64,000 nucleotides of DNA from Amycolatopsis sp. EV170708-02-1. GTDB lineage: Bacteria > Actinomycetota > Actinomycetes > Mycobacteriales > Pseudonocardiaceae. The notes below the pieces were generated by a model, which saw nothing but the letters and a program-made list of their open reading frames with translations, searched no databases and had not been told where the DNA came from. Shown here piece after piece: positions 34,404 through 51,252 of the stretch (the first letter of the stretch is position 1; each line of letters starts with the position of its first letter). The translations under genes were made by a program, and so were the position numbers. The stretch lies in assembly GCF_022479115.1 (NCBI RefSeq), contig NZ_CP092497.1:8618001-8682000 (forward strand), read 5' to 3'.

Positions 34404-34609
34404 TGCCTCCCGTACTTCTTGTGCACCGCTTGCCTGCTGACCCCCAGCTCGGCCGCGATCTCCTGCCAGGACCAGCCGTGCACCCGCGCGCTGCGGACCT
34501 GCACGGCCTCGAGTTGTTCCAACAGCCGGCGCAAGGCGGCGACGGCGCGCAATCCCACCCGGGGATCGCGGTCACCGGCTCGCGCGGCCAGATCTGTCGC
34601 TTCGGTCAT
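34400..34609 (-). CDS. Small helix-turn-helix protein coupled to Clp_N
   Basis: A 69-residue protein. N-terminal helix AVAALRRLLEQLEAVQVRSAR, then the HTH WSWQEIAAELGVSRQAVHKKYG (about 46-67). The ATG at 34609 has no ribosome site; a promoter with TTGACA, 17-bp spacer and TAGGTT places the transcript start at the ATG itself, so it is probably leaderless. Twin GTCAAC-N4-GTTGAC dyads at 34613-34655 overlap this promoter and suggest autorepression. Confidence 0.85.
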   Translation of the reverse strand: MTEATDLAARAGDRDPRVGLRAVAALRRLLEQLEAVQVRSARVHGWSWQEIAAELGVSRQAVHKKYGRH

Positions 34610-34612
34610 GAC

Positions 34613-34655
34613 GTCAACCTACGTTGACATCTCGCCCATGTCAACCTCAGTTGAC
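34613..34655. promoter_or_regulatory. Twin operator and leaderless promoter of the HTH-Clp_N operon
   Basis: GTCAACCTACGTTGAC (34613-34628) and GTCAACCTCAGTTGAC (34640-34655), centres 27 bp apart. On the minus strand the -35 (TTGACA, 34644-34639) and -10 (TAGGTT, 34621-34616) lie inside the two dyads with a 17-bp spacer. The second dyad ends 15 bp before the divergent PP2C-like gene. The same layout is at 51208-51252. Confidence 0.75.
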
Positions 34656-34670
34656 AGTTAGGGTCGGGGC

Positions 34671-35444
34671 ATGGCCGAAATCGCAGTGGCGGAAAGGGAC
34701 GGAGTGGGCGCGGACGGATCGACGCGCCCGACCGAGGACCACGTCGCCGTCCTCGGCAACGCCGTGGTGGTGCTGGACGGGGCGACCGCGCCGCGGCCGG
34801 ATCTGCCGTCCGGCGGCTGGTACGCGAGCCTCCTCGTGCACAGCCTGTCGCGGGCGCTGAGCGCGGAACCCCAGGCCGATCTCGCGGTGTTGCTGGCCGA
34901 GTCGATCGCTGACGTCGCCCAGCGCGAAGGCCTCGAACCGGGACGTTCGCCGTCGAGCACGGTCGCGATCGCGCGCTGGACGGACGACACCGTCGACGGG
35001 CTGGTGCTCGCCGACAGCCCCATCGTCGCCTTCGGCCCTTCCGGCGCCGACCCGCTCACCGACGACAGGCTCGTCTCGCTGCGCGAAAGCGGTCAGCTCC
35101 GCACCGGCGCCGACGTCCGCGCGAAACGCAACGCGCCGGACGGCTTCTGGGTCGCCGAAGCGGAACCCAGGGCCGCCGCCGAAGCCGTCCGCCGCAGTTG
35201 GCCGCGCTCGGAGGTCGACGCCCTGCTGCTGGCCACCGACGGCGTCGCGATCGGTGTCGACGAGTACGGCCTGTTCGACTGGCCGGAGGTGCTCGCCATC
35301 AGCCGGGAGCGTGGCCCGGACGCCGTCCTCGACGCGGTGCGCACGGCCGAGAAACAGGATCCCGACGGCGAGCGCTGGCCCCGCGCGAAAAGGCACGATG
35401 ACCAGCTACTGGTACTCGTCGACTTCGGGGTAGCCCCAGGGTAA
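34671..35444 (+). CDS. PP2C-like serine/threonine phosphatase family protein
   Basis: A 257-residue PP2C-fold protein. TEDHVAVLGNAVVVLDGATAPRPDLPSGGWYA has the metal-binding Asp-Gly, DALLLATDGVAIGVDEYGLFDW the second Asp, and AKRHDDQLLVLVDFG the terminal Asp pair. The N-terminal Arg/Asp motif differs from classic PP2C (no RxxNED), so activity may be altered. It is divergent from the HTH-Clp_N operon, and the shared 60-bp gap contains the twin operator, so co-regulation is likely. Confidence 0.8.
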   Translation: MAEIAVAERDGVGADGSTRPTEDHVAVLGNAVVVLDGATAPRPDLPSGGWYASLLVHSLSRALSAEPQADLAVLLAESIADVAQREGLEPGRSPSSTVAIARWTDDTVDGLVLADSPIVAFGPSGADPLTDDRLVSLRESGQLRTGADVRAKRNAPDGFWVAEAEPRAAAEAVRRSWPRSEVDALLLATDGVAIGVDEYGLFDWPEVLAISRERGPDAVLDAVRTAEKQDPDGERWPRAKRHDDQLLVLVDFGVAPG

Positions 35445-35497
35445 AACCGGGGGCTTCCCGGATCGGAAAACCGCGTCCGCGCGAGCACGCTGGACGC

Positions 35498-36397
35498 ATG
35501 ACGTTCCCTGGGGAGAGATCGCGGGCGAGACCCTGGCTGATCGCGTCGGGCGCGGCCATCGGCTGGGCACTGTTCACCATGGTGGTGCTGCACCTGATCA
35601 GCTCACGCGATCCGGTGTTCGACACGCTGTCCAGCTACGCCTATGTCGACCGCGGCACCGGCATGCTCGGGGCCAGCGTGCTCTCCCTCTCCATCGGCTC
35701 ACTCACCGCGCTCGGCGCGCTGGCCGCGGCCGGGATCCCGCTCAGCCGCACCACGAAACTGCTGTTCGTGCTGTGGTCACTCGGGCTGGCGGCGGCCGCG
35801 ATCTTCCCGGCGAGCTACCCGGAGTTCCCGGATCCGGTCAGCGGCGAGATCCACCTGTACGCGTGTCTCATCGCGTTCCTCAGCCTGCCCGCCGCCGGTT
35901 TCACCCTGCGCGACAACCTGCGCGGCACCCCCGCGGCCAGGCTGATCGGCCGCCTGGCCTGGGGCAGCGCCGCCGGGCTGATCGTCTTCGGGCTCAGCTT
36001 CATCTTCGTGCGCCTGGCCGACATCCCGTTCTTCAAGACCTTGACCGACATCGCGCCGGTCGGCGTCATGCAGCGGGTTTCCCTGGTGGCACACGTGATC
36101 CTGATCGCCGGGATGCTGAAGGTCGCGTCAGCCGCGCACCGCGTCGGCGAATTCGGGGGCGTACCCGTAGAGGCCGGGCAGCCCGCCCGTGTGCAGGAAG
36201 ACAACGTGCTCGTCGGGCGCGAAATGGCCTTCGGCGGCCCAGCGGATCAGCGCGGCACCCACTTTGCCGGTGTACACGGGATCGAGCGCGATTCCTTCCG
36301 TGCGGCCGAAAAGCCGCACCGCGTCCCACGTCTCGCCGGTCGGGATCCCGTAGCCGGGGCCGATCGTGCGGTCGTCGATGCGCAGACCTTCGAGTGA
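35498..36397 (+). CDS. DUF998 family membrane protein with antisense C-terminal extension
   Basis: The first 210 residues are a DUF998-type protein with six membrane helices (WLIASGAAIGWALFTMVVLHLIS, MLGASVLSLSIGSLTALGALAAAG, LLFVLWSLGLAAAAIFPAS and others) and FPASYPEFPDPVSGEIHLYACLIAFLSLPAAG. The frame has no stop at the expected end (about 36130) and runs 270 nt antisense into the desulfhydrase gene, adding about 90 residues of non-hydrophobic sequence. The extension is probably not a conserved domain; a nearby indel or natural stop loss are possible. Function of DUF998 unknown. Confidence 0.75.
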   Translation: MTFPGERSRARPWLIASGAAIGWALFTMVVLHLISSRDPVFDTLSSYAYVDRGTGMLGASVLSLSIGSLTALGALAAAGIPLSRTTKLLFVLWSLGLAAAAIFPASYPEFPDPVSGEIHLYACLIAFLSLPAAGFTLRDNLRGTPAARLIGRLAWGSAAGLIVFGLSFIFVRLADIPFFKTLTDIAPVGVMQRVSLVAHVILIAGMLKVASAAHRVGEFGGVPVEAGQPARVQEDNVLVGREMAFGGPADQRGTHFAGVHGIERDSFRAAEKPHRVPRLAGRDPVAGADRAVVDAQTFE

Positions 36398-37141
36398 CGG
36401 CGGCTCAGTGCCGAGCAGCACGGAGGCGGCGATGGTGAGATCGGCCAGATTGTCGAGGGCTTCGTCGACCGGATGGCTGACGCAGGCGATGTCCAGCGTC
36501 AGCCGGTCGAGGCCGGCCGTGCCGACGACGAGCCCGGCGGACGTCCCGCCGCTGGCGTGCGGAGCGACCAGCCGCGCCTCGGTGATCCCCAGCTCGGCGA
36601 GCTGCCCCTCGATCTCCTGCGCGGCCGCGACGTAGCCGAGCGCCCCGACACCGTCGGAGCCGCCGACGGGGAACGTCGCCACCTGCCGCCCCTCTGCCGC
36701 GGCCTCGGTGATCAGCCGGTCGTAAGTCCTGCCGGTCTCCTCACCGTCGCGGCAGATGTGCACGTTCGCGCCGAAGAGGTGGTCGAGGGAGACGTTGCCG
36801 GACCGCTCGTACGCGTCGCCGTCGCGAGGGACCTTCGCGGTCAGCACGAGCTCGCATCGCAACCCGAGCTTCGCGCAGGCGGCCGCGGTCTGGCGGCCAT
36901 GGTTGGTCTGCAGCGCGCCGAAGGTGATCACCGTGTCGGCGCCGTTCTCGATCGCCGCGCCGAGCAGGAACTCGAGTTTGCGCAGCTTGTTGCCGCCCAC
37001 GCCAAGCGGATGCACGTCGTCCCGTTTGAGCAGCAGATTCGGCAGTCCGAGTGCCTCGCCCAGCCGGGGCGCGGGATGCAGCGGCGTCGGATAGCCGCCG
37101 AGGTCGACGCGGGGGAAGCGATCGAGGTTCATGAACTTCAC
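36128..37141 (-). CDS. D-cysteine desulfhydrase / ACC deaminase family PLP enzyme
   Basis: A 337-residue fold-type II PLP enzyme. FPRVDLGGYPTPLHPAPRLGEALG, the PLP lysine in HPLGVGGNKLRKLEFLLG and TFGALQTNHGRQTAAACAKLG are diagnostic. The phosphate-binding loop is APHASGGTSAGLVVG. Likely converts D-cysteine (or a D-amino acid/ACC) to pyruvate or 2-oxobutyrate and ammonia; DcyD is favoured. Divergent from the amidase operon with the TetR-type dyad at 37170 between, so it may be in the same regulon. Confidence 0.88.
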   Translation of the reverse strand: MKFMNLDRFPRVDLGGYPTPLHPAPRLGEALGLPNLLLKRDDVHPLGVGGNKLRKLEFLLGAAIENGADTVITFGALQTNHGRQTAAACAKLGLRCELVLTAKVPRDGDAYERSGNVSLDHLFGANVHICRDGEETGRTYDRLITEAAAEGRQVATFPVGGSDGVGALGYVAAAQEIEGQLAELGITEARLVAPHASGGTSAGLVVGTAGLDRLTLDIACVSHPVDEALDNLADLTIAASVLLGTEPPSLEGLRIDDRTIGPGYGIPTGETWDAVRLFGRTEGIALDPVYTGKVGAALIRWAAEGHFAPDEHVVFLHTGGLPGLYGYAPEFADAVRG

Positions 37142-37169
37142 GTAACCACACCGAGGCTACTCGGTGGTA

Positions 37170-37189
37170 TCGTTCGTTTGAACGAACGA
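37170..37189. promoter_or_regulatory. TetR-type operator
   Basis: TCGTTCGTT-TG-AACGAACGA, a perfect 9-bp dyad, lies 28 bp upstream of the desulfhydrase start and 19 bp upstream of the amidase start. The size and AACGAACG sequence are typical of TetR-family operators. The TetR gene at 38588 belongs to the amidase operon, so autoregulation is expected. Confidence 0.7.
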
Positions 37190-37208
37190 GAACCTGCAGG
37201 GGGAGCCC

Positions 37209-38591
37209 ATGACCACCTCGAAGGCGGACCTCGCGTTCACCGGCCTCGCCGAACAGGCCTCGATGCTCACCGCCGGAGCCACGACATCCGTCGAGCTCAC
37301 GCGCTTGGCGCTCGAAAAGGCCGAAGCCAGCCAGCCCGTTCTCAACGCCTTCAAATGCCTTCGCGCGGAAGAAGCCCTTCGCGAGGCCGAGGCGGCCGAC
37401 CGGCGGCTGGCCGACGGCGAATCCGCTCCCCTGCTCGGCGTCCCCACCGCGATCAAGGACGACCTCGACGTCACCGGCCTGCCGACAGCGTTCGGTTGCG
37501 AAGGCGATTTCTCCGTCGCGACAACGGATTCCCCGCCCGTCGCCGCGCTCCGCGAGGCGGGCGCGGTGCTCATCGGCAAGACCAACACCCCGGAACTCGG
37601 CCAATGGCCCTTCACCGAAGGCCCGGCGTTCGGCGCGACCCGCAATCCGTGGGACACCGAACGCACCCCGGGCGGTTCCTCCGGCGGCGCGGCGGCGGCC
37701 ATCGCGTCGGGGGTGATCGCCGCCGCGCTGGGTTCCGACGGGGCGGGGTCGATCCGGATCCCGGCCGCGTGGACCGATCTGGTCGGGATCAAACCGCAGC
37801 GTGGCCGCGTCCCGACCGAACGCGAACTCTTCCACGGCCTGACCGTGGTCGGCCCGCTCGCGCGCACCGTCGCCGACGCGGCGCTGCTGCTCGACGTCGC
37901 CGCCGGCACCGGCACCGCGTTCCAGGCCGCCGCCCGCCGCGAGCCGGGCCGGATGCGGATCGGGTTGTCCAAGCGGATCCCTTTCACCGCGACGAAAACC
38001 AAACTCGAACCGCAGGCGCACGCGGCCGTCGTCCGGCTCGCGGAGCGGTTCGCCGAACTCGGCCACGAGATCGTCGAGATCGAACCCGACTACCGGCTGA
38101 TCGGCCTCACCTTCCTGCCTCGTTCGCTCGTCGGCGTGCGCGACTGGTCCCGTCGCGTCCCGGACCAGGCTCGGCTCGACCCGCGCACACGCGCCAACGC
38201 ACGGCAGGGTTCCGCACTGGCCGGGCCGGCCCTGCGGCTCGCCCGCGCCACGGAACCGTTGCTGCAACGGCAGATCGGCTCGGTGTTCGGCCGGGTGGAC
38301 GTCGTGCTCACGCCCACCACCGCCACGCCGCCACCGCGGATCGGCACCTTCGACAAGCTCTCCGGCTGGCAGACCGACCAGGCCATGATCGCCGCGTGCC
38401 CCTACGCTTGGCCGTGGAACGTGCTGGGCTGGCCGGGGGTCAACGTCCCCGCCGGGCTGAGCCCGGAAGGCCTGCCGCTCGGCGGTCAGCTGCTCGGTCC
38501 CTCGCATTCCGAGGAGCGGCTGATCTCGCTGGCCGCGCAACTGGAAGAGGTCGAACGGTGGCAGGACCGCAAACCCGAGACCGCTTGGTGA
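37209..38591 (+). CDS. Amidase (amidase-signature family)
   Basis: A 460-residue amidase hydrolysing an amide to acid and ammonia. The Ser-cisSer-Lys triad is visible: Lys near 83 in TAIKDDLDV, cis-Ser near 157 in GGSSGGAAAAIASG, nucleophile Ser near 181 in GSDGAGSIRIPAAW. The ribosome site AGGGGGAG precedes the ATG. First gene of an operon with TetR (GTGA overlap) and an MpaB-type oxygenase. The substrate is not evident; the oxygenase and the TetR regulator suggest a catabolic or detoxifying route. Confidence 0.93.
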   Translation: MTTSKADLAFTGLAEQASMLTAGATTSVELTRLALEKAEASQPVLNAFKCLRAEEALREAEAADRRLADGESAPLLGVPTAIKDDLDVTGLPTAFGCEGDFSVATTDSPPVAALREAGAVLIGKTNTPELGQWPFTEGPAFGATRNPWDTERTPGGSSGGAAAAIASGVIAAALGSDGAGSIRIPAAWTDLVGIKPQRGRVPTERELFHGLTVVGPLARTVADAALLLDVAAGTGTAFQAAARREPGRMRIGLSKRIPFTATKTKLEPQAHAAVVRLAERFAELGHEIVEIEPDYRLIGLTFLPRSLVGVRDWSRRVPDQARLDPRTRANARQGSALAGPALRLARATEPLLQRQIGSVFGRVDVVLTPTTATPPPRIGTFDKLSGWQTDQAMIAACPYAWPWNVLGWPGVNVPAGLSPEGLPLGGQLLGPSHSEERLISLAAQLEEVERWQDRKPETAW

Positions 38592-39136
38592 ACACCCGCG
38601 AGGCCATTCTCCACGCCGCCCTCAAGGTGGTCGGGGAACAAGGTGTCGGCGGGCTGACCAACCGCCGGATCGCGCGGCAGGCCGAGGTCTCGCTCGGCAC
38701 GCTGACCTACCACTTCCCCAGCCAGACGGCCTTGCTGCGCGAGGCGATGCTGCTGTTCGTGGAAGAAGAGACCACGAAGCTGACCGGGTTCGTCGACGCG
38801 TACCGCGAGCAGGGCCTGAGTGTCGAGCAGGCCGCGTCGGTGGTCGAGCAGGTCATCGAGCAACTGCCGTTCGGCACCGACGAACTCGGCGCGCACGAGC
38901 TGTACCTGCAGGCCGCGCGCGACCCGGAACTCCAGGACGCGGCCGCCCGCTGTTTCGCCGCGTACGACGAACTCGCGCTGGTGATCCTGAAAACGCTCGG
39001 CGTGCCGTCGCCGGAACGGCTGACCGGTCCGGTCGTCGCGCTGATCGCCGGGTTGCAGTTGCGCAGGCTGGCCACGGGCGACGACGGCGTCGGGGTGGCG
39101 CAGTCGCTGATGATGCTCGTCCGCGGCGCGTCATGA
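38588..39136 (+). CDS. TetR-family transcriptional regulator
   Basis: A 182-residue regulator with GTG start overlapping the amidase stop. The HTH is at 1-47: REAILHAALKVVGEQGVGGLTNRRIARQAEVSLGTLTYHFPSQTALL. The C-terminal ligand domain includes ELYLQAARDPELQDAAARCFAAYDELALVILKTLG. It probably represses its own operon through the dyad at 37170-37189. The stop overlaps the next start (ATGA). Confidence 0.93.
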   Translation: MNTREAILHAALKVVGEQGVGGLTNRRIARQAEVSLGTLTYHFPSQTALLREAMLLFVEEETTKLTGFVDAYREQGLSVEQAASVVEQVIEQLPFGTDELGAHELYLQAARDPELQDAAARCFAAYDELALVILKTLGVPSPERLTGPVVALIAGLQLRRLATGDDGVGVAQSLMMLVRGAS

Positions 39137-39984
39137 CCGGTCCGCCGATCGTCAAGGGGACGGCGGCGTGGAAGTACTTCGGCGACTTCCGGGCCGGGCT
39201 GCTGGCGGGCCAGGTGCTGGTGCTGCAGGTCGCGCATCCGGTCGTCGCGGCCGGGGTGCGGGATCATTCCGACTACGTCGAGGATCCGTGGACCCGGCTC
39301 ATGCGCACGGCCGCGTCGCTGTCCATCTACATCTACGGCGGCCCGGAGGGCGCGCGGTACGAGGCGGACCGGCTGCGCGCGCTGCACCGGTCGTTCACCG
39401 GCGTCGACGGCGGGCGCCGCTACAGCGCGCTGAACCCGCACGCGTACGCCTGGGTGCACGCCACGCTCGTCATGGTTCCCGTTGACACACAACGGTTCTA
39501 CGGCACCCCGATGACACCGTCCGAATTGGACGAGTACTACGCGCAGATGCGCGACGTCGGACGGCTGCTCGGCCTGCGTGAGCAGGACATGCCACCCACA
39601 TGGCCCGAATTCGAGCGGTACTACGCGGAGATGATCGACGGGTTCGGCCCGAACGAAACGATTTCGACATTGTTCGAAACGATTCGGACGGTGAAGAAAC
39701 CGTGGAGATGGCTGCCCGACAAACGCTGGATTCGGCTTCAGCGATGGCAGCATCGGGGGCAGATGTTCGTCATCCGCGCCACACTGCCGCCCGCACTGCG
39801 TGATCGCCTCGGTCTACAGTGGACTAGTCGTGACCAGCGCCGATTCGACCGGTTCCGTCGCGTGGTGCGCTTCCTGGGCGGCCTGGTGCCGGTGACGCTG
39901 CGTTCGTCGCTCGTGCGGAGGATCGGCAGGCTCAACGTCTGGTTCCGGGCGCATCCCCGCGCGTATCGTTTCCTCGGGGGCTGA
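39133..39984 (+). CDS. DUF2236 / MpaB-type oxygenase family protein
   Basis: A 283-residue protein of the ER-bound oxygenase MpaB / rubber oxygenase (Lcp-like) family. GLLAGQVLVLQVAHPVVAAGVRDHSDYVEDPWTRLMRTA contains the conserved His region used for haem binding, and SALNPHAYAWVHATLVMVPVDTQRFYGTPMTPSELDEYYAQMRDV continues it. Actinobacteria have many such proteins, with oxidation of hydrophobic substrates inferred. Translationally coupled to the TetR gene. Confidence 0.9.
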   Translation: MTGPPIVKGTAAWKYFGDFRAGLLAGQVLVLQVAHPVVAAGVRDHSDYVEDPWTRLMRTAASLSIYIYGGPEGARYEADRLRALHRSFTGVDGGRRYSALNPHAYAWVHATLVMVPVDTQRFYGTPMTPSELDEYYAQMRDVGRLLGLREQDMPPTWPEFERYYAEMIDGFGPNETISTLFETIRTVKKPWRWLPDKRWIRLQRWQHRGQMFVIRATLPPALRDRLGLQWTSRDQRRFDRFRRVVRFLGGLVPVTLRSSLVRRIGRLNVWFRAHPRAYRFLGG

Positions 39985-40008
39985 CCCCCCCACCGGAGTA
40001 AGGGACGT

Positions 40009-40028
40009 GGTCCCCTGTACGGGGGACC
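40009..40028. promoter_or_regulatory. Inverted repeat before the YtkA/FixH-type cluster
   Basis: GGTCCCC-tgtacg-GGGGACC is a perfect 7-bp dyad, 56 bp upstream of the first gene of the cluster. G/C-tract dyads of this kind resemble metal-sensor (CsoR-like) operators, but the match is only general. It could also be the terminator of the preceding operon, although no U-tract follows. Confidence 0.35.
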
Positions 40029-40084
40029 CCGATTCCCCCGCGCTGTGACGCTTTCCCGGGCCGTCGTCGTTAACTTCGGCCGGG

Positions 40085-41533
40085 ATGGGGAATTCACCGA
40101 GGGGGCGGCGCACGGCGCCGATGGTCATCGCCCGCGTACTCGTGCTCTGCGCGCTGGCGTCCGTTCTGCTGTCCGGCACCGCGCAGGCGGACGGCGTGTC
40201 GAGCGGCGCGGACGTCCAGGTCGCGCAGACGCTCGGCACGCGGGATCTCACGGTCATCCTGCGGCGGATGGACATCGCGCCCGGACCGCTGCACGTCGAC
40301 GTCGTCACGCATACCGGAAGCGCGCCGGGAACGCTGAAACTGCGCGCGTCCACCGCCGGAACGACGTTTTCCGAAACGACGGTGCCGCTGGACGGGAAAC
40401 CCGGAGCCCATGCGGCGCGGCTTCAGGTCGATCAGCCGGGGCCGTGGGAACTCGGCCTGGACGACGGGACGGATACCGCCTCGATCCCGTTCATCGTTCC
40501 GGCCAGGGTCATCCCTCCGTGGGAGAAGGCCACCTTCGGCGGCTTCGTCGCCGCGGGTGTGTTCCTGGTGCTCGGCCTCGTCGTCGCGATGCGCGTCAAA
40601 CGGCCGCAGCTCGCGCTGATCCCGGCGGGCGGGATGGTCGCCGCGCTAGCGGTCGCGGTCACCGGCGCGATGCTGTCGGCGTCCACTCCGCCGCCGCCCG
40701 CGCCCGGTGCGGCGCTGGATCCGACGATCGACAACATCCGGGACCCGTACGCGAACGCGCAGATGTCCACAGTGGACTTCTCGCGTCCGCCGGTGAATCT
40801 GGCCGTGCGTTCGCCGAACGCGCGGACGGGCGCTCTCGCCGAAGTGCGTCTCGCCCTCGCCGACGGCTCGACCGGCCGCCCCGTCGACGACCTACTGGTG
40901 CACGACAACGCTTTGATCCACCTCGTCGTCATCTCGCCGACGGGCAGGCTCTGGCATCTGCATCCGGTGCGCGTCGGCCCTGGTGACTACCGGGTGAAGT
41001 TCACCCCGCCCGAGGCCGGGACCTACGCCGTCGCCGCGGAACTCGCCCGGCGAGGCGGTGGCGTGCAGCTGCTCCGCACCACACTGGGTGTCGCGGCCGG
41101 AACGGACTCCCCGGCCGAACCCGTCCCCGCCGGAGCCGGAAAGCGGGTCGTGCAAGGGAATCCGGTCGACGTCGAGATCCGGCCGGGTACGCCGGCCACG
41201 ATCACCGCGCGGTTCGCCCACGCGGATCTCCAACCCTGGCTGGGCATGCTCGGCCACCTCATCGTCGTCGGCCCGATCACCGGCGACCACCGGGTCGGCG
41301 CGGATGCCGCTGCCGCGCCGACCTGGGCCCATGTGCACTCGATGATCCCGCAGGCACCGGGAATGCCGGGCAAACCCGACGAAACCGTCGCCGCGTACGG
41401 TCCCGACGTCCCGTTCACGTACACCTTCGCCGCGCCTGGAAAGTACCGCGTCTGGCTGCAGGCCGAGCGCGGCTACACGGTGCTGACCGTGCCCATGCAG
41501 ATCGAGGTCCCGGCGGAAGGGGCACCACAGTGA
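40085..41533 (+). CDS. Large exported/membrane protein with His-rich extracytoplasmic domain
   Basis: A 482-residue protein. Signal-like helix VIARVLVLCALASVLLSGTAQA, an extracytoplasmic domain (about 37-140), two membrane helices (ATFGGFVAAGVFLVLGLVVAM; LALIPAGGMVAALAVAVTGAML), then a C-terminal domain with several His motifs (HDNALIHLVVISPTGRLWHLHPV; FAHADLQPWLGMLGHLIVVGP; WAHVHSM) and a beta-sandwich end. These resemble YtkA/FixH and copper-binding modules. First of four overlapping genes. A copper or metal role is inferred; no transport ATPase is present. Confidence 0.75.
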   Translation: MGNSPRGRRTAPMVIARVLVLCALASVLLSGTAQADGVSSGADVQVAQTLGTRDLTVILRRMDIAPGPLHVDVVTHTGSAPGTLKLRASTAGTTFSETTVPLDGKPGAHAARLQVDQPGPWELGLDDGTDTASIPFIVPARVIPPWEKATFGGFVAAGVFLVLGLVVAMRVKRPQLALIPAGGMVAALAVAVTGAMLSASTPPPPAPGAALDPTIDNIRDPYANAQMSTVDFSRPPVNLAVRSPNARTGALAEVRLALADGSTGRPVDDLLVHDNALIHLVVISPTGRLWHLHPVRVGPGDYRVKFTPPEAGTYAVAAELARRGGGVQLLRTTLGVAAGTDSPAEPVPAGAGKRVVQGNPVDVEIRPGTPATITARFAHADLQPWLGMLGHLIVVGPITGDHRVGADAAAAPTWAHVHSMIPQAPGMPGKPDETVAAYGPDVPFTYTFAAPGKYRVWLQAERGYTVLTVPMQIEVPAEGAPQ

Positions 41534-41937: not shown

Positions 41938-41955
41938 GAGAGGGAGGTCGGGGGT

Positions 41956-43630: not shown

Positions 43631-43653
43631 CTCGAAGTGACCGATGATCGGCT

Positions 43654-43683
43654 GGCTCGCGTGTCCCGATGGGCACGCGAGCC
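43654..43683. terminator. Bidirectional terminator
   Basis: GGCTCGCGTG (43654-43663) pairs with CACGCGAGCC (43674-43683), and CCC/GGG can pair inside the loop; TTT follows on the plus strand. It lies between the end of the four-gene cluster and the end of the convergent DUF397 gene. Confidence 0.8.
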
Positions 43684-43688
43684 TTTCG

Positions 43689-44790: not shown

Positions 44791-44796
44791 CGAGGA

Positions 44797-45654
44797 TCAG
44801 GGCTTGCGGCCCAAGCCGCCGAGCCCGCCGGTGAACGTCGGGTCGTCCGCGAACCGGTCGCTGGCACGGGAATCCGCCTCGTCGAGATGCCAGGTGGCCA
44901 TCCAGTCGATCCCCGGCTCGACCATCTCCAGTCCGTCGAAGAACGAGGCGAACTCGGCGCGGGACCGCAGATGGAACGGCGCGCTGGTCTTCTTGTACAG
45001 CTCCTGGACGTTCTCCCGGTTGTCGCCTTCCTTGCGCGTGACGCCGTCCTCGGTCAGATGCGAGGACAGGAAGTACGAACCCGACGGCAGGAAATCGAGA
45101 TAGCGCTGGACCATCTCGTACACGGGCTCGTCCGGGCCGAGGAAGTACAGCAGGCCCACCAGTACCAGCCCGATCGGCTGGCGCGGGTCGATCACGCCGG
45201 TCTCGAGGGCGCGTTTCCAGATGTCGGCGGGATCCCGGACGTCGCCCTGCAGGACCGCGTGCCGCCCGAGCAGCCCCTCACGTTCCAGCAGCAGCTGGGA
45301 ATGCGCGACGGCGACCGGCTCGATGTCGACGTAGACGACCCGGCTGTCCGGGTTGACCGCGCTCGCGATCTGGTGGACGTTGCCGACGGTGGGCACGCCG
45401 GAACCGATGTCGAGGAACTGCGTGATCCCCTGGCGGGCCAGGTATCCCACGCCGCGGCCGAGGAAGTCGCGGCCGACGCGGGCGAACGTCTTGACCTCTG
45501 GGAACTGCTTGAGCACCTGCGAGCCGAACTCGCGGTCGATGGCCCAGTTGGCCGAACCGCCGAGGAACCAGTCGTACACCCTGGCCACGTTGGGTCGTTC
45601 GAGATCGACCCCCTCGGGGGCCACCGGGTCGATGGGGTCGTGCTGCGTCGTCAT
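44797..45654 (-). CDS. DUF574 SAM-dependent methyltransferase, copy A
   Basis: A 285-residue member of the actinomycete DUF574 family. The start EGVDLERPNVARVYDWFLGGSANWAIDREFG and SAM motif FLDIGSGVPTVGNVHQIASAVNPDSRVVYVDIEPVAVAHS are diagnostic. GSYFLSSHLTEDGV and a C-terminal domain follow. Streptomyces have dozens of these, often near XRE-DUF5753/DUF397 genes; substrate unknown. Last of three minus-strand genes. Confidence 0.92.
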   Translation of the reverse strand: MTTQHDPIDPVAPEGVDLERPNVARVYDWFLGGSANWAIDREFGSQVLKQFPEVKTFARVGRDFLGRGVGYLARQGITQFLDIGSGVPTVGNVHQIASAVNPDSRVVYVDIEPVAVAHSQLLLEREGLLGRHAVLQGDVRDPADIWKRALETGVIDPRQPIGLVLVGLLYFLGPDEPVYEMVQRYLDFLPSGSYFLSSHLTEDGVTRKEGDNRENVQELYKKTSAPFHLRSRAEFASFFDGLEMVEPGIDWMATWHLDEADSRASDRFADDPTFTGGLGGLGRKP

Positions 45655-45668
45655 ACCGTCACACCTCG

Positions 45669-46484
45669 TCAGGAAGCGGGTTTGCGGGCGACCCCGCCGA
45701 TGGCGCAGTCAACCGCAGGCGGGCGGGGGTCGTCCAGCCGCCATGCGCCGACCGGGACCAGACCCGGTGTCACGAGGTCGAAATCCCCGAAGAAACCGAG
45801 GATCTCTTCCTTGTCGCGGAAGGACGCGGGCGTGCTCGACTGTTCGTACTGCTTCACGACGCGCTGGATCTGGGCCAGCTCGTCACCCTCCACGCCGGAC
45901 ATCGTGACGTGGGACAGGACGTAGAAGGAACCGGCGGGCAGCAGCCTCCGGTAACGGGCGATGACGTCGGAGAGTTCGGGGCCCGGCACGAAATGCAGGA
46001 CCGCGACGGTGAGCAGGGCGACCGGTTTCGCCGGGTCGAGCACGCCTGTGTCGAAGGCGTGTTCCCAGATGTCGTCCGCGTCGCGCAGGTCGCCGCCGAT
46101 CACCGCGTGCCTGGCGGGATCCCCGTTCCGCTCCAGCAGGATCCTGGCGTGCGCGACGGCGACCGGTTCGTTGTCGACGTACACGCACCGGCTGTCGCCG
46201 TCGACCTCGTCGGCGATCTCGTGGACGTTGCCGACTGTCGGCACGCCTGAACCCAGGTCGAGGAACTGGGTCACGCCGTGCTCGGCGCAATACCGGACGG
46301 CGCGGCCGAGGAAGGCCCTGTTCGCCCTGGCTGCGGTGCGCACCAGCGGGAAGGTCTTGACCAGCTGCTCGCCGAATTCCCGGTCCACGGCCCAGTTCGC
46401 GGTGCCGCCGAGCGCCCAGTCGTAGATCCGGGCGGCGTTGGGCCGCTCGAGATCCACGCCTTCGGGGAGGAACCGCGGGTCCAT
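45669..46484 (-). CDS. DUF574 SAM-dependent methyltransferase, copy B
   Basis: A 271-residue paralogue of copy A. ATG at 46484 gives MDPRFLPEGVDLERPNAARIYDWALGG. Motif I is FLDLGSGVPTVGNVHEIADEV, then CVYVDNEPVAVAHARILLERNG. Asp replaced by Asn at VDNEP relative to copy A (VDIEP) may alter cofactor contact. It begins 1 nt after the XRE-DUF5753 gene and is followed at 14 nt by copy A. A tandem duplication is likely. Confidence 0.9.
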   Translation of the reverse strand: MDPRFLPEGVDLERPNAARIYDWALGGTANWAVDREFGEQLVKTFPLVRTAARANRAFLGRAVRYCAEHGVTQFLDLGSGVPTVGNVHEIADEVDGDSRCVYVDNEPVAVAHARILLERNGDPARHAVIGGDLRDADDIWEHAFDTGVLDPAKPVALLTVAVLHFVPGPELSDVIARYRRLLPAGSFYVLSHVTMSGVEGDELAQIQRVVKQYEQSSTPASFRDKEEILGFFGDFDLVTPGLVPVGAWRLDDPRPPAVDCAIGGVARKPAS

Positions 46485-46485
46485 C

Positions 46486-47343
46486 TCAGGCTTGCATCTG
46501 TGTTCTGTACAGCTCGGCGAGTTCCTTGAGGAACTGCCGGGTTTCCTGGCGTTCCAGCGCGGCGCCGCGCAACCTGTCCCAAGAGTCCACGAAGATGTTG
46601 AAGTCCTTGACGTCGTCGAGGTACAGCCCGCCGGCGGAATGTTCGATGTAGACGAAATCCCGGGTGCGGTCCGGGAAACGCATGATGGTGAAGTCGTTGG
46701 GCACGGCGGCGAGCCGCGCACCGAACGGCAGCACGTGCACGTACACGCGCGGATGCTTGTCCAACGCCAGCAGATGCTCGACCTGGTCCAGCATCACCGC
46801 CGGGGCGGAACCACCGGGAGCGCGGCGCAAGGCGCCCTCGCTGATGATGAACCGGTAGTAGGGCGGCTGCTGCTGCTCGAAGACGGCCTTGCGGTCCAAG
46901 CGGTTGCGGACCAGCGAAGTGACGTCGGTGGCGCCGGCTTCGGTGAACTGCTTGAGCATGTAGTGCTCGGACTGCAACGGGCCGGGGATGCGCTCACCGT
47001 GCCAGGTGAGGATCTCCGCGGCCGCGGGTTCGAGGTCGGTGAAGGTGCGGAACCAGTGCGGCACCACGGATCGGTAGCCGGACCAGTGGCCGCGCTGCCC
47101 GGCCGCGGCGCGGGCCAGGTTCATCAACGTGTCGGCCTCGTCGCCGTTGATCCCGAACGCGTTCAGCATCGATCGCACATCCCCGAGCTTGACCCCGACG
47201 GCACCGGACTCGATCTTGTTGACCTTGCCCTGGGTGCAGCCGAGCACTTCGGCGACCTGCTGCTGTGTCATCCGCGCGGCGTTGCGGGCATGCCGGAGCT
47301 CGTTCCCGAGCTGCTTCCGGCGCGAGGTGACGGTGCTGGCCAT
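46486..47343 (-). CDS. XRE-family regulator with DUF5753 domain
   Basis: A 285-residue regulator. HTH at about 12-65 (LGNELRHARNAARMTQQQVAEVLGCTQGKVNKIESGAVGVKLGDVRSML), then the DUF5753 domain (about 95-275) with ERIPGPLQSEHYMLKQF and LPFGARLAAVPNDFTIMRFPDRTRDFVYIEH. In Streptomyces such proteins act with DUF397 partners (BldB/WhiJ-like systems). It heads the operon with two DUF574 methyltransferases, and a DUF397 gene lies 2.5 kb away. Confidence 0.92.
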   Translation of the reverse strand: MASTVTSRRKQLGNELRHARNAARMTQQQVAEVLGCTQGKVNKIESGAVGVKLGDVRSMLNAFGINGDEADTLMNLARAAAGQRGHWSGYRSVVPHWFRTFTDLEPAAAEILTWHGERIPGPLQSEHYMLKQFTEAGATDVTSLVRNRLDRKAVFEQQQPPYYRFIISEGALRRAPGGSAPAVMLDQVEHLLALDKHPRVYVHVLPFGARLAAVPNDFTIMRFPDRTRDFVYIEHSAGGLYLDDVKDFNIFVDSWDRLRGAALERQETRQFLKELAELYRTQMQA

Positions 47344-47560
47344 CGCCTTGCTCTCCCGGACATAGACCAGGACCGCGGTTGCCCGCCGTCCTGCGCGCGA
47401 ATACTCGAACCCACCCAGGGTACTTCACCTTGCGGGGTTCGATGATGACATTGCGCAGCGTTCCAGGAAACGCCCGAAAACACCAGTCACCTGGTACGTC
47501 ACCCTGGTGGCGGAGCGATCTCGTCACATTTCGGGCACGCCGGTCGGGCATAGTGACCGA

Positions 47561-48469
47561 GTGGACCAATCCCCCTTCGCCGAGCAGGTCACCGATGGTG
47601 TGTTCGGGTACGTCCAACCCGACGGCTCGTGGTGGATCAACAACTGCGGCTTCGTCGCCGCGGGCGATCACACGGTGGTGATCGACACGTGTTCGACCGA
47701 ACGGCGCACCAGGGCGCTGCTGGCGACGGCCGAAGCGACCGGCGGGGCGCCGGTGACCACTGTGGTCAACACGCATCACCACGGCGACCACACGAACGGC
47801 AACTACCTGGCGACCGGTGCGACGATCGTCGGGCACCGGAAGACGCGCGAGGTGATGGTCGCGACCGGGATCAACACCTATGGGAACTCGTTCACCGGGA
47901 ACGACTGGGGCCATCTGGAGCTTCGGCCACCCGACGTGCTGTTCGACGACCGGCTGACCGTGCATGCCGGCGACGTCCGGCTGGAGCTGATCCACCCCGG
48001 ACACGCCGCGCACACCACCAACGACGTCCTCGTCTGGCTGCCGGAGCGGCGGGTGCTGTTCGTCGGGGACCTGATCTTCAACGGCGGCAGCCCCTTCGCG
48101 CTGATGGGCTCGCCCGCCGGCTGGCGGCGGGCGCTGGACCTGGTCCGCGAACTCGAACCGGAGACGATCGTGCCGGGCCACGGCCCGATCTGCGGCCCCG
48201 AGGCGATCGACGTCGTCGACGGATACCTGGGTTTCCTGCAGAAACTCGCTTCGTACGGGAAGGCCGCCGGGTTGACTCCCCTTCAGGCCGCTCGCGAAGC
48301 GGATCTGGGGCCTTACGAGGCACTGTCCGAACAGGAACGGCTTCCGGCGAACCTGCACCGGGCTTACGCCGAACTGGACGGTCTGGAGTGGGGTGGGGCG
48401 ATCGATCTGGGGGCTGCGCTGACGGACATGGTCACCTTCAACGGCGCGCCCATCCGGTGCTTCTCCTGA
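47561..48469 (+). CDS. MBL-fold metallo-hydrolase
   Basis: A 302-residue metallo-beta-lactamase-fold protein. The GTG at 47561 is preferred because the fold starts soon after (EQVTDGVFGYVQPDG). The binuclear zinc motif is NTHHHGDHTNGNYL; the third His is in IHPGHAAHTTNDVLVW, the bridging Asp in VLFVGDLIFNGG, and the last His in IVPGHGPICG. The GHAAHTTND stretch resembles alkyl-sulfatase/quinoprotein-relay-type hydrolases. Substrate unknown. Confidence 0.88.
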   Translation: MDQSPFAEQVTDGVFGYVQPDGSWWINNCGFVAAGDHTVVIDTCSTERRTRALLATAEATGGAPVTTVVNTHHHGDHTNGNYLATGATIVGHRKTREVMVATGINTYGNSFTGNDWGHLELRPPDVLFDDRLTVHAGDVRLELIHPGHAAHTTNDVLVWLPERRVLFVGDLIFNGGSPFALMGSPAGWRRALDLVRELEPETIVPGHGPICGPEAIDVVDGYLGFLQKLASYGKAAGLTPLQAAREADLGPYEALSEQERLPANLHRAYAELDGLEWGGAIDLGAALTDMVTFNGAPIRCFS

Positions 48470-48607
48470 CGCTCTCGCCCCGGCGTGTTGCGAGAGTGGC
48501 TTTCGCAACACTTCTTCAGCGCGCCGGACGTCAGGAAAGGAGCGTTCAAGACCTCCGAACGCCCCGTCCGCGGCCTTCGCACTCTCGCTCGCTTCGCCCC
48601 GCCACGT

Positions 48608-48668
48608 GCGTGTTCCCAATGTCGCATCAGAGACCCTCAGCGTCCCAAATGCGACATTGGGAACACGC
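48608..48668. repeat. 20-bp-arm palindrome
   Basis: Arm 48608-48627 (core GTGTTCCCAATGTCGCAT) pairs perfectly with 48649-48668; the loop is 21 nt and repeats part of the arm as TCCCAA. Located between metallo-hydrolase and gnd on the same strand. Terminator or mobile-repeat remnant. Confidence 0.6.
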
Positions 48669-48845
48669 GTCTCGCCGCAACCCCGCACGCCCCGAAGGCC
48701 CCCTTCAAGACGTCCAGCGTCCCCAAGGCCCCTTCAAAACACCCAAAATCCCGCTCGGAGCCCCCACACGCAGCCCCCACCCGTCCCTGGGGGCGACCCC
48801 GATCCCAGCGTACCGCCGCAAGTGCCGCGTCAGGCCCCGTGAGCC

Positions 48846-48881
48846 GAGTTGTCCACAGGCGGGCCCGGTTGTGGACAACTC
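48846..48881. promoter_or_regulatory. Inverted pair of TTGTCCACA (DnaA-box) sites
   Basis: GAGTTGTCCACA (48846-48857) and TGTGGACAACTC (48870-48881) form a perfect 12-bp dyad with 12 bp between. Each arm contains TTGTCCACA, the preferred Streptomyces DnaA box. Located about 80 bp upstream of gnd. Confidence 0.5.
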
Positions 48882-48962
48882 CCGGTTGATCCCTTCCCGT
48901 CCCGGCGCCGTATCCCTCAACGGGGATAGGCTCGGCACGGGAATCGAAGCGGAAGGGTGCGG

Positions 48963-50402
48963 ATGAGCAAGAAGGCGAGCATCGGGGTCACCGGCCTGGC
49001 GGTCATGGGCCGCAACCTGGCCAGGAACCTGGCGAGGCACGGGCACACGGTGGCCCTGCACAACCGCTCCGAGCAGCGGACGAAGGAACTGGTCGACCAG
49101 TTCGGCGACGAAGGCGACTTCATCCCGGCGTACTCGGCGCAGGAGTTCGTCGACGCGCTGGAGCGTCCGCGCCAGGTCGTGATCATGGTCAAGGCCGGCG
49201 CACCGACGGACGCGGTGATCGACGAGTTCGTCCCGCTCCTCGAAAAGGGCGACGTGATCGTCGACGCGGGCAACGCGCACTTCGCGGACACGCGGCGCCG
49301 CGAGGCCGCGCTGCGCGAGAAGGGCATCCACTTCGTCGGCACCGGCGTGTCCGGCGGCGAGGAGGGCGCGCTGCACGGGCCGAGCATCATGCCGGGCGGC
49401 TCCAAGGAGTCGTACCAGTCGCTCGGGCCGCTGTTCGAGGACATCTCGGCGAAGGTCGACGGCGAGCCGTGCTGCACGCATGTGGGCGCCGACGGCGCAG
49501 GGCACTTCGTGAAGATGGTGCACAACGGCATCGAGTACGCCGACATGCAGTTGATCGCCGAATCGTTCGACCTCCTGCGCGGCGCGGGCGGCTACTCCCC
49601 CGCCGAGATCGCCGAGGTCTTCCGCACCTGGAACTCGGGGCGCCTGGACTCGTACCTGATCGAGATCACCTCGCAGGTGCTGGCCCACACCGACGCCGCG
49701 TCCGGCAAACCGTTCGTCGACATCGTGGCGGACCAGGCCGAGCAGAAGGGCACCGGCCGCTGGACCGTCCAAATCGGACTGGACCTCGGCGTGCCGATCA
49801 GCGGCATCGCCGAAGCCGTCTTCGCACGCTCGCTGTCCGGTTCGTCGAGCCTGCGCGAGGCCTCCCGCGGTCTCGGCGGTCCCTCGCGCGCGCCGCTGAC
49901 GGGGTCCGCTTTGGACACTTTCGCGGACGACGTCGAGCAGGCGTTGTACGCGTCGAAGGTGGTGGCGTACGCCCAGGGCTTCAACCAGATCCAGGCCGGC
50001 GGCGCCGAATACGGCTGGGACATCGACCTCGGCAAGGTCGCGTCCATCTGGCGCGGCGGCTGCATCATCCGCGCGAAGTTCCTGAACGACATCACGGCCG
50101 CGTACGCCGAAGAGCCCGCGCTGCCGACGCTGCTGACTTCGGGCGGATTCCGCAAGGCTGTCGAGGACGCCCAGGACTCCTGGCGTTCGGTGATCTCCAC
50201 GGCGGTGCGGCTGGGCATCCCGACACCGGGCTTCTCGACCGCGCTGGCCTACTACGACGGTCTGCGCGCGGAGCGGCTCCCCGCCGCGCTGGTGCAGGGG
50301 CAGCGGGACTACTTCGGTGCCCACACGTACCGCCGCGTCGACCACGAGGGCTCGTTCCACACCGCCTGGGCCGCCGACGGCCGCCCGGAATCCCCCGCCT
50401 GA
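48963..50402 (+). CDS. gnd: 6-phosphogluconate dehydrogenase (decarboxylating)
   Basis: Pentose-phosphate enzyme of 479 residues, converting 6-phosphogluconate to ribulose-5-phosphate with NADPH formation. The ATG at 48963 is preferred (GAAGGG 6 nt upstream). The coenzyme fold ASIGVTGLAVMGRNLARNLARHGHTVALHNRS has GxAxMGxN; FVGTGVSGGEEGALHGPSIMPGG and GAGHFVKMVHNGIEYADMQLIAE contain the catalytic Lys and Asn. Length is the long-chain form. It converges on the HTH-Clp_N gene. Confidence 0.97.
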   Translation: MSKKASIGVTGLAVMGRNLARNLARHGHTVALHNRSEQRTKELVDQFGDEGDFIPAYSAQEFVDALERPRQVVIMVKAGAPTDAVIDEFVPLLEKGDVIVDAGNAHFADTRRREAALREKGIHFVGTGVSGGEEGALHGPSIMPGGSKESYQSLGPLFEDISAKVDGEPCCTHVGADGAGHFVKMVHNGIEYADMQLIAESFDLLRGAGGYSPAEIAEVFRTWNSGRLDSYLIEITSQVLAHTDAASGKPFVDIVADQAEQKGTGRWTVQIGLDLGVPISGIAEAVFARSLSGSSSLREASRGLGGPSRAPLTGSALDTFADDVEQALYASKVVAYAQGFNQIQAGGAEYGWDIDLGKVASIWRGGCIIRAKFLNDITAAYAEEPALPTLLTSGGFRKAVEDAQDSWRSVISTAVRLGIPTPGFSTALAYYDGLRAERLPAALVQGQRDYFGAHTYRRVDHEGSFHTAWAADGRPESPA

Positions 50403-50406
50403 CGGG

Positions 50407-50483
50407 GGCTGAAGGGGACTTTCCCCGCATCGCATGCGACGAAAGCGTCCTTCACCCCGTCTGACGAGGTGAAGGACGCTTTC
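50407..50483. terminator. Palindrome, GAAGGACGCTTTC family, copy 5
   Basis: GAAAGCGTCCTTCACC (50441-50456) pairs perfectly with 50468-50483, 11-nt loop with an inner CGTC/GACG. A further variant half unit, GGGCTGAAGGGGACTTTCCC, precedes it at 50407. The stop codon of the minus-strand Clp_N gene (50482-50484) is part of the repeat. Between convergent genes. Confidence 0.65.
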
Positions 50484-51204
50484 AGCCCTCCCCGCGCGCC
50501 GCGACGATCTCCGCCAGCGCCCGCAGAATCACCGCCTCGGTGTTCTCCTTCGTGAGGCCGAGCCCGGTCAGCAGATCGTCGCCGAGTTCGAACAGGGCCA
50601 ACAGGATGTGCTCGGTGCCGATGTAGTTGTGCCCGAGCCGCAGCGACTCCCGCATGGTCAGCTCCAGCGCCTTCTTGGCCTGCGCGCCGAACGCCATCTT
50701 CGCCGCCTCCGGCGGTTCGGCGGCGGGTTCCGGCAGCTTCGCCTCCGCGGCCTCGCGGACGGCTTCGAGAGTCACCTTCTGCGCCACGATCGCCCCGGCG
50801 GCGAGGGCCGCCGGTTCGGAGAGCAGCCCGAGGACCAGATGCGCGGGCTCGATCTGCGGGCTCTTCGCCGAGACAGCGGCATCGCGCGCCGCGACGACGA
50901 CTTGCCGCGCCCGATCCGTGTAGCGGCTGAACACCTTCACCAGGTCTTCCAGCGACGAGCCGCTGGAGTCGACAAAGCGCTTCTGCGCCGCCTGCTTGGA
51001 CACCCCCATGTTCTTGCCGATTTCGGTCCAGGACGCGCCGGACCGCCGCGCCTGGTCGACGAAGTGGCCGATCAGGTGGTCGGCCACTTCGCCGAGGTGC
51101 TCGCCGAGGAAGACCGCGTCGGACAGCTGGCCGAGCACGTCGCCGTCGGGATGCTGCTGCTTGATGTGGGAGATGAGGTCGTCGAGCCGGACTGGATTCG
51201 TCAT
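50482..51204 (-). CDS. HTH-Clp_N fusion regulator
   Basis: A 240-residue protein. Residues 1-57 are helical; 58-77 form an HTH (SWTEIGKNMGVSKQAAQKRF) matching the small HTH protein at 34400 (SWQEIAAELGVSRQAVHKKY). From about 88 come two Clp_N repeats (FSRYTDRARQVVVAARDAAV...IEPAHLVLGLLSEP; MAFGAQAKKALELTMRESLRLGHNYIGTEHILLALFELG). No ATPase domain. The ATG at 51204 lacks a ribosome site; -35 TTGACG, 17 bp and -10 TAAAGT place the start of RNA at the ATG. Twin dyads overlap this promoter. Confidence 0.9.
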   Translation of the reverse strand: MTNPVRLDDLISHIKQQHPDGDVLGQLSDAVFLGEHLGEVADHLIGHFVDQARRSGASWTEIGKNMGVSKQAAQKRFVDSSGSSLEDLVKVFSRYTDRARQVVVAARDAAVSAKSPQIEPAHLVLGLLSEPAALAAGAIVAQKVTLEAVREAAEAKLPEPAAEPPEAAKMAFGAQAKKALELTMRESLRLGHNYIGTEHILLALFELGDDLLTGLGLTKENTEAVILRALAEIVAARGEG

Positions 51205-51207
51205 GCC

Positions 51208-51252
51208 GTCAACTTTAGGTTGACGACCATGAATCGTCAACCCCGGGTTGAC
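51208..51252. promoter_or_regulatory. Twin operator and leaderless promoter of the HTH-Clp_N fusion gene
   Basis: GTCAACTTTAGGTTGAC (51208-51224) and GTCAACCCCGGGTTGAC (51236-51252), centres 28 bp apart, overlap the -10 (51217-51212) and -35 (51240-51235) respectively on the minus strand. The second dyad also encodes the last codons and stop (51237-51239) of the flavin reductase gene. Same arrangement as 34613-34655. Confidence 0.75.

What the first reader, a model, noticed from the sequence alone, without database searches (positions are those of the whole stretch)
34600..51252. Two HTH/Clp_N loci share a twin inverted-repeat operator fused to a leaderless promoter
Seen: 34613-34655 and 51208-51252 each hold two GTCAAC-N4/5-GTTGAC dyads, centres 27 and 28 bp apart. 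In both, the upstream dyad contains a -35 (TTGACA or TTGACG), the downstream dyad a -10 (TAGGTT or TAAAGT), spacer 17 bp, and the ATG sits 6-7 nt after the -10. No ribosome site is present, so both mRNAs should be leaderless. Both promoters drive genes with the same kind of HTH. Inference: the HTH binds GTCAAC-N4/5-GTTGAC and represses itself, possibly with cross-regulation between loci. The Clp_N part could sense damaged protein or arginine phosphorylation.
Basis: partly seen in the sequence, partly recalled or inferred. Interest (0 to 1): 0.78.

Follow-up and report, generated by a model that had tools for sequence, protein, structure and literature searches.

The report
Split and fused ClpC2-type autorepressors
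Two neighbouring genes for stress-sensing repressors sit behind matching double DNA sites that most likely let each protein switch itself off; one copy is the known ClpC2 switch, the other is a common two-protein version, for which I found no description, whose DNA sites change in step with its DNA-reading helix.

Summary
In detail: four perfect GTCAAC-N4/5-GTTGAC dyads in two twin pairs, the only four in the 9.66 Mb genome. Locus B (P0001) is a fused HTH-Clp_N protein, a ClpC2 orthologue. Its kind of twin N5 operator, leaderless promoter and autorepression is published for mycobacterial ClpC2 (PMC10030653). Locus A is not one gene but a 69-aa HTH protein overlapping a separate Clp_N protein, behind an N4 operator. 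I found no description of this split form in open-licence papers (searches named in the report). It is common: 68 of 150 family genomes hold an HTH at least 75% identical. Among loci fetched by protein, not by site, a twin dyad precedes the HTH in 233 of 252; Clp_N follows in 260 of 268. Split loci use N4, fused ones N5. Half-site bases 5 and 6 vary with recognition-helix residues 61 and 64, the top-ranked of 240 and 233 HTH and Clp_N columns. This points to the HTH as the DNA reader, rather than the Clp_N arginines proposed in print. Cross-regulation between the loci looks unlikely. No binding was measured, and the tree-corrected covariation test lacks power.

The parts
34640..34655 (-). Operator A, promoter-distal dyad, GTCAAC-N4-GTTGAC; carries most of the -35 TTGACA (34644-34639)
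34613..34628 (-). Operator A, promoter-proximal dyad, N4; carries the -10 TAGGTT (34621-34616); ends 3 nt before the ATG
34400..34609 (-). Locus A gene 1: 69-aa HTH protein (P0002), recognition helix GVSRQAVHKKY, start predicted leaderless
   Evidence: a copy at least 75% identical in 68 of 150 family genomes
33876..34400 (-). Locus A gene 2: 174-aa Clp_N protein (P0003); its ATG overlaps the HTH stop (TGATG) and follows a GGGAGG
   Evidence: Clp_N 35.6 bits over cut-off 20.7
51236..51252 (-). Operator B, promoter-distal dyad, GTCAAC-N5-GTTGAC; carries most of the -35 TTGACG (51240-51235)
51208..51224 (-). Operator B, promoter-proximal dyad, N5; carries the -10 TAAAGT (51217-51212); ends 3 nt before the ATG
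50482..51204 (-). Locus B: 240-aa fused HTH-Clp_N protein (P0001), ClpC2 orthologue, recognition helix GVSKQAAQKRF
34671..35444 (+). PP2C-like phosphatase gene diverging from operator A; possible second target
   Evidence: PP2C_2 28.1 bits, cut-off 24; a tblastn hit at E<=1e-5 in 55 held loci, which include overlapping copies of the window locus

Best explanation
Both loci are self-repressing sensors of the ClpC2 kind. An HTH dimer binds each of two dyads laid over the -35 and -10 of a leaderless promoter and blocks transcription. The recognition helix reads the half-site: residue 61 goes with base 5 and residue 64 with base 6. At locus B the HTH and the Clp_N sensor are one protein (ClpC2). 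At locus A they are two translationally coupled proteins, and I infer that the Clp_N protein acts on the HTH protein. When Clp_N binds its ligand (a ClpC1-binding cyclic peptide or unfolded protein, by analogy with ClpC2 and cyclomarin), repression is lifted and more Clp_N is made, which soaks up the ligand and shields ClpC. The two paralogues are kept apart by half-site spacing, N4 against N5. Shown here by sequence: anatomy, conservation, spacing split, covariation. Inferred: binding, repression, HTH-Clp_N contact, ligand, insulation.
For: Only four sites in the genome, all at these two loci; the genome holds four Clp_N genes, two long frames of 889 and 866 aa (presumably ClpC and ClpB) and these two. 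Twin dyads found without assuming a sequence: 249 of 268 distinct split loci, 0 of 268 shuffles, spacing even in 247 of 249; 16 of the 268 had been fetched by the site pattern, and without them the count is 233 of 252. Fused loci: odd axis in 35 of 37, 25 of 27 without pattern-fetched ones. Of 61 operator loci read, 10 of 10 N5 twins precede fused ClpC2 and 15 of 25 N4 twins precede HTH+Clp_N; 0 of 26 single sites lie by a tblastn match to either. Residue 61 A or G: base 5 is A in 222 of 222; residue 61 S or T: G in 22, A in 2, undecided in 11 of 35. The arm that forms the -35 keeps A (TTGAC) in 33 of those 35 while the other three arms carry G in 33, 27 and 29. Blind column scan: the best column for base 5 is HTH residue 61, for base 6 HTH residue 64, for base 1 HTH residue 42. 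Leaderless layout: TAnnnT 6 or 7 nt before the start in 235 of 257 split loci (12 of 257 shuffled); SD-like words before the HTH in 5 of 257 but before Clp_N in 130 of 252. Published: mycobacterial ClpC2 binds CGTCAAC-n5-GTTGACG and represses itself; cyclomarin lifts this (PMC10030653).
Against: No binding or expression data for either window protein. The association tests ignore shared descent; on the tree residue 61 and base 5 change four times each, residue 64 six and base 6 five times, and only two independent pairs per trait rest on well-supported branches, too few for significance. In 19 of 268 loci no clear twin was found. K64 tolerates T at base 6 (112 of 868 arms) and Q64 shows no clear preference. 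In fused loci TAnnnT sits 6 or 7 nt before the chosen start in only 27 of 37, partly from start choice. A published double mutant in the Clp_N half weakens DNA binding and repression, and one of the two arginines (R185) is kept in 201 of 259 split Clp_N proteins, so Clp_N matters in some way. Nine of 25 N4 twins lie at genes I could not tie to this family. Nothing here shows that P0002 and P0003 touch.
Confidence: 0.8

Rival explanations
1. The Clp_N half, through two arginines (R185/R189 of mycobacterial ClpC2), is the sequence-reading DNA-binding part, as proposed in print; the N-terminal part only dimerises.
For: R185A/R189A lowers DNA binding in gel shift and the matching change raises clpC2 mRNA 2.0-fold in M. 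smegmatis (PMC10030653). Both arginines are well kept in fused ClpC2: 38 of 38 and 35 of 38 rows, the window's own counted twice; R185 is also kept in 201 of 259 split Clp_N proteins.
Against: R189 is kept in only 26 of 259 split proteins, and behind the same GTCAAC half-site both arginines occur in 17 of 200; P0003 has R and D. Four solo HTH loci with no Clp_N match in the next 1.1 kb (L034, L123, L125, L127) keep the GTCAAC-type N4 twin. Half-site bases 5, 6 and 1 each track an HTH column best. The solved N-terminal fragment 8ADA ends at MGV, just before the predicted recognition helix 70-77, so that helix was not seen there. In the same paper the R57A change, in the N-terminal part, derepressed more (4.6-fold).
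Confidence: 0.1
2. The dyads are only promoter elements: conserved -35 TTGAC and -10, with the symmetry incidental.
For: A -10-like TAnnnT inside the proximal dyad is present in 235 of 257 split loci, mostly with TTGAC 17 or 18 bp upstream.
Against: The outer half-sites, which are not promoter hexamers, are equally conserved and change with the HTH helix. Single sites elsewhere are not by these genes. ClpC2 was shown to bind such a site.
Confidence: 0.04
3. The two loci form one cross-regulated circuit through a shared operator.
For: Identical half-sites, related helices (48% over 29 residues), 16.6 kb apart.
Against: Spacing differs by 1 bp and the difference is kept across the class: even axis in split, odd axis in fused.
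Confidence: 0.15
4. Locus A is a decaying or disrupted clpC2 copy rather than a real two-gene system.
For: Same domain order as ClpC2, split at the domain border.
Against: The HTH is 100% identical in the seven same-genus genomes of the sample, the window's own included; the layout recurs in 260 of 268 loci; a stop-start distance of -4 or -1 in 156 of 252 points to translational coupling.
Confidence: 0.02

Closest known systems
ClpC2 of mycobacteria (Rv2667 type), Taylor et al. 2023, PMC10030653 (passages, section 11 and part 1 of 8 of the text seen)
   Same: Domain order, twin dyads over -35 and -10, suggested leaderless transcript, half-site GTCAAC, N5 spacing at locus B, Clp_N pocket residues F2, F80, E89.
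   Different: Locus A is split into two proteins and uses N4. The paper assigns DNA contact to Clp_N arginines; the covariation here points to the HTH helix.
RelI antitoxin of the RelS-RelI system, NAR 2026, PMC13284704 (passages seen)
   Same: Short HTH protein that its authors relate to a ClpC2 HTH region; PDB 9sdc (RelI) matches P0002 at E 0.0013.
   Different: RelI is paired with a RelE-superfamily toxin, sits second in its operon, and the authors found no inverted repeats upstream; locus A is paired with Clp_N behind a twin operator.
ClpC1 N-terminal domain (PDB 3wdc and others)
   Same: Sequence and fold of the Clp_N half of P0001, with its ligand pocket residues.
   Different: No AAA+ modules in P0001 or P0003; not an unfoldase.

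Membership tests
ClpC2 | N-terminal helical/HTH part fused to one Clp_N domain, no AAA+ | tested here: met
   Locus B:
ClpC2 | Same fused architecture at locus A | tested here: not met
   Locus A is two overlapping genes, so it is ClpC2-like, not ClpC2
ClpC2 | Operator CGTCAAC-n5-GTTGACG one to two nt before the ORF, often twin | tested here: met
   Locus B: both dyads are CGTCAAC-N5-GTTGACG, twin; the seven-base arm ends 2 nt before the ATG
ClpC2 | n5 spacing at locus A | tested here: not met
   Both dyads are N4, as in the split family
ClpC2 | Cyclomarin-contact residues F2, F80, E89 | tested here: met
   P0001 and P0003 both F, F, E
ClpC2 | Arginines R185 and R189 | tested here: inconclusive
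   P0001 keeps both, P0003 has R and D
ClpC2 | Binds its operator and is released by cyclomarin | not testable with these tools
   Needs gel shift and expression assays
RelS-RelI toxin-antitoxin | HTH protein encoded next to a RelE-family toxin | tested here: not met
   The partner gene of P0002 is Clp_N

The most novel reading that the evidence does not exclude
Actinobacteria carry a large, undescribed family of two-protein sentinels for attack on ClpC: a small HTH repressor and a separate Clp_N sensor/sponge. Paralogues avoid cross-talk by a readable code, helix residues 61 and 64 (and residue 42) against half-site bases 5, 6 and 1, plus a one-base difference in half-site spacing between split and fused types. 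The DNA-reading role now assigned to the Clp_N domain of ClpC2 belongs to its N-terminal HTH, whose recognition helix is missing from the solved fragment.
Probability: 0.55. Interest if true: 0.72.

Novelty: new variant of a known kind. Interest (0 to 1): 0.58.

Why it matters
ClpC1 is the target of several antibacterial peptides, and ClpC2 is a known sensor that protects mycobacteria from one of them (PMC10030653). A split version found in many actinobacterial genomes gives natural variants in which sensor and repressor can be studied apart. The covariation makes the question of which domain of ClpC2 reads DNA directly testable with one pair of residue changes and a few short DNA probes.

Tried and rejected
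Single-sequence structure prediction of P0001 gave pLDDT 40.5 and was not used; a 39-row alignment gave 92.0. The first script for fused loci found none because of a bug of mine and was redone. One fused hit, L350, was dropped for lack of a start codon; the other 42 collapsed to 37 distinct. Two fused loci (L343, L359) show no twin at the start I picked, probably a start-picking error, and stay in the 37 as misses. For the covariation, 11 of 268 split loci were dropped: nine with weak twin fits (listed) and L122 and L129, where the fit fell on an unrelated sequence. Of the 268, 16 had been fetched by the site pattern itself; one search repeats the counts without them. Cross-regulation and chance were considered and set aside for the reasons given. 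Searches of the plasmid (E 1e-5) and phage (E 1e-2) collections found no P0002 relative. Rejected as a covariation artefact: register choice, because the spacing scan assumed no half-site. Phylogenetic correction was tried and is underpowered. Transcription-start tables of Streptomyces papers were not looked up (supplement cap 0), so leaderless starts rest on sequence alone.

Full report
Observation. The promoter reading is also right: -35 and -10 lie in the upstream and downstream dyads, the spacer is 17 bp, and the ATG follows the -10 by 6 nt (locus A) or 7 nt (locus B).

What the genes are. Locus B encodes a 240-aa protein whose C-terminal half matches ClpC2 and ClpC1 N-domain structures (9p2p 7e-42, 8ad9 1e-32) and whose N-terminal part matches the ClpC2 fragment 8ADA (3e-25). 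It is a ClpC2 orthologue; the nearest named relatives are from Amycolatopsis. Locus A is two genes: a 69-aa HTH protein (Sigma70_r4_2 and HTH_23 just above Pfam cut-offs) and a 174-aa Clp_N protein, joined as TGATG with GGGAGG just before. The genome has four Clp_N genes: two long frames (889 and 866 aa, presumably ClpC and ClpB) and these two.

What is known. Taylor et al. 2023 (PMC10030653; I saw the passages, part 1 of 8 of the text and section 11) report that mycobacterial ClpC2 represses itself at CGTCAAC-n5-GTTGACG, often twin, over putative -35 and -10 elements, with a transcript suggested to be leaderless, and that cyclomarin releases it. So locus B's arrangement is already known in kind. 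They place DNA contact in the Clp_N half (R185, R189). A 2026 paper on the antitoxin RelI (PMC13284704, passages) relates RelI to a ClpC2 HTH region. A second 2026 paper (PMC12913811, passages) repeats the ClpC2 autorepression model. Searches for the split form or for an HTH reading of the operator found no report (open-licence PMC papers only, so subscription papers are not excluded). PMC7159879 (passages) mentions ClpN repeats in other systems. PMC8068612 (passages) concerns cyclomarin-like clusters and suggests a ClpX-like gene, not Clp_N, as a possible self-resistance gene.

How common. Of 150 genomes sampled from the family, 132 hold at least one exact site, single sites included; 122 have some HTH relative of P0002 at E<=0.001, and 68 have one at least 75% identical. 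The HTH model from 17 rows hits 274 of 394 genomes of the class at E<=0.001, but this counts fused ClpC2 and other relatives too (the window's genome has three matches), so it is an upper bound for the split form. The short HTH is identical in the seven same-genus genomes of the sample and 93-100% identical in the Amycolatopsis records.

Which genes the sites serve. I read the surroundings of 61 operator loci: the window's two, the 30 loci returned, and 29 further sites from its listing. This is part of the 132 genomes, because the listing was cut; for six genomes only the first site is included, and one listed twin, held as L058, is not. Twin N5: 10, all at fused clpC2. Twin N4 (second dyad allowed one mismatch): 25, of which 15 at HTH+Clp_N, 1 at a solo HTH, 9 at other genes, one of these (L069) an HTH-like frame with a TAG. 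Single sites: 26, none with a tblastn match to P0001, P0002 or P0003 within 1.5 kb. Some of the nine other twins lie before alpha/beta-hydrolase-like genes (L006, L008, L071) or near a MoxR-like ATPase gene (L009, L070); these names are my reading of the sequence, not a family search.

Unbiased dyad search. Of 359 loci held, 321 had an HTH-model hit, 275 passed score and start rules, 268 are distinct in sequence, many of them near relatives. A scan that assumes no half-site and spacers 1-9 finds a twin dyad scoring 14 or more in 249 of 268 and in 0 of 268 shuffles; the axis is even in 247 of 249 (spacer 4 or its shifts 6, 8 and 2), centres are 26-29 bp apart. Sixteen of the 268 had been fetched by the site pattern; without them 233 of 252 have the twin. 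Among 37 distinct fused loci the axis is odd (spacer 5 or its inward shift 3) in 35; the other two, L343 and L359, show no twin at the start chosen; without pattern-fetched loci it is 25 of 27. So the family difference N4 against N5 is general, and cross-talk between loci A and B is unlikely, though not excluded.

Leaderless and coupled. Of 257 split loci with a usable fit, 235 have TAnnnT 6 or 7 nt before the start codon (12 of 257 have it in the same stretch after shuffling). SD-like words precede the HTH in 5 of 257, the Clp_N start in 130 of 252, random positions in 20 of 257. The Clp_N start lies at -4 from the end of the HTH stop in 122 and at -1 in 34 of 252. Among the 37 fused loci TAnnnT is found at 6 or 7 nt in 27. 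Clp_N follows the HTH in 260 of 268.

Who reads the DNA. Half-sites change with the recognition helix: QA.HKK with GTCAAC, QT.HRK with GTCAGC, QS.HEK with GTCAGG, QS.H(A/T/N)K mostly with GTCAGT or GTCAGG. Residue 61 A or G goes with base-5 A in 222 of 222 loci; S or T goes with G in 22, A in 2, undecided 11. Most undecided cases fit the promoter: in the 35 S/T loci the arm that forms the -35 keeps A in 33, while the other arms carry G in 33, 27 and 29. After thinning to 78 rows, the 71 with a decided base 5 give 57 A and 0 G for residue A/G against 1 A and 13 G for S/T (Fisher 2e-13); the 71 with a decided base 6 give K/R 59 C and 0 other, other residues 1 C and 11 other (5e-12); these values ignore descent. 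On a tree built without the helix, residue 61 and base 5 each change four times, residue 64 six and base 6 five times; only two independent pairs per trait lie on starred branches, with the base going the same way in 1.8 of 2 on average and never the other way, which cannot reach significance. As a control for descent I scanned HTH and Clp_N columns (240 for base 5, 233 for base 6): residue 61 then 64 rank first for base 5 (0.585, 0.492; next 0.137), 64 first for base 6 (0.385; next 0.218), 42 first for base 1 (0.701; next 0.378). Residue 42 aligns with R53 of P0001 (by eye), which aligns with position 57 of the 8ADA chain, apparently the dimer-interface R57 of the paper.

Against the published assignment: behind GTCAAC, split Clp_N proteins carry both arginines in 17 of 200 (R189 in 26 of 259 overall), solo HTH genes without Clp_N keep the operator, and the solved N-terminal fragment stops at MGV just before the recognition helix, residues 70-77 in the predicted model (pLDDT 92.0 overall). 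For the published view: R185A/R189A does weaken binding in the fused protein, and R185 is kept in 201 of 259 split proteins, so Clp_N may brace or position the dimer, or the residue may serve the pocket.

Sensor. The cyclomarin-contact residues are mostly kept in split Clp_N: F2 229, F80 201, E89 172 of 259. P0003 keeps all three. The ligand of the split system, and how Clp_N talks to a separate HTH, are open; a direct complex is my favoured guess.

Verdict. Observation confirmed; locus B already known in kind; locus A is a new variant of a known kind with an unusually clear sequence code. Interest 0.58.

Noticed in passing
34671-35444 (+): A PP2C-like phosphatase gene starts 15 nt beyond operator A on the other strand; similar genes are found in 55 held loci, overlapping copies included, so it may be co-regulated.
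   Followed up: partly
51237-52450 (-): The oxidoreductase-like gene just upstream of locus B appears as two frames (52450-51545 and 51707-51237), so it may carry a frameshift or sequencing error; the distal dyad lies at or in its end.
   Followed up: no
L034, L122, L123, L124, L125, L127, L129: A solo-HTH branch (75-78 aa) has no Clp_N match downstream; four keep a GTCAAC-type N4 twin, and hydrolase-like or MoxR-like genes sit next to some of them or behind similar twins in related genomes (L006, L008, L009, L070, L071).
   Followed up: partly
L128, L130, L131, L132, L321, L323, L328: A branch with half-site AGCAAC instead of GTCAAC but a QA.HKK-type helix; HTH residue 42 is the best-correlated column.
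   Followed up: partly
L125 upstream of the HTH: Three N4 dyads in a row (starts at -73, -46 and -19) instead of two.
   Followed up: no
L128 gene 2: The second gene of this split locus seems to continue beyond a shortened Clp_N part into another domain (alignment A2).
   Followed up: no
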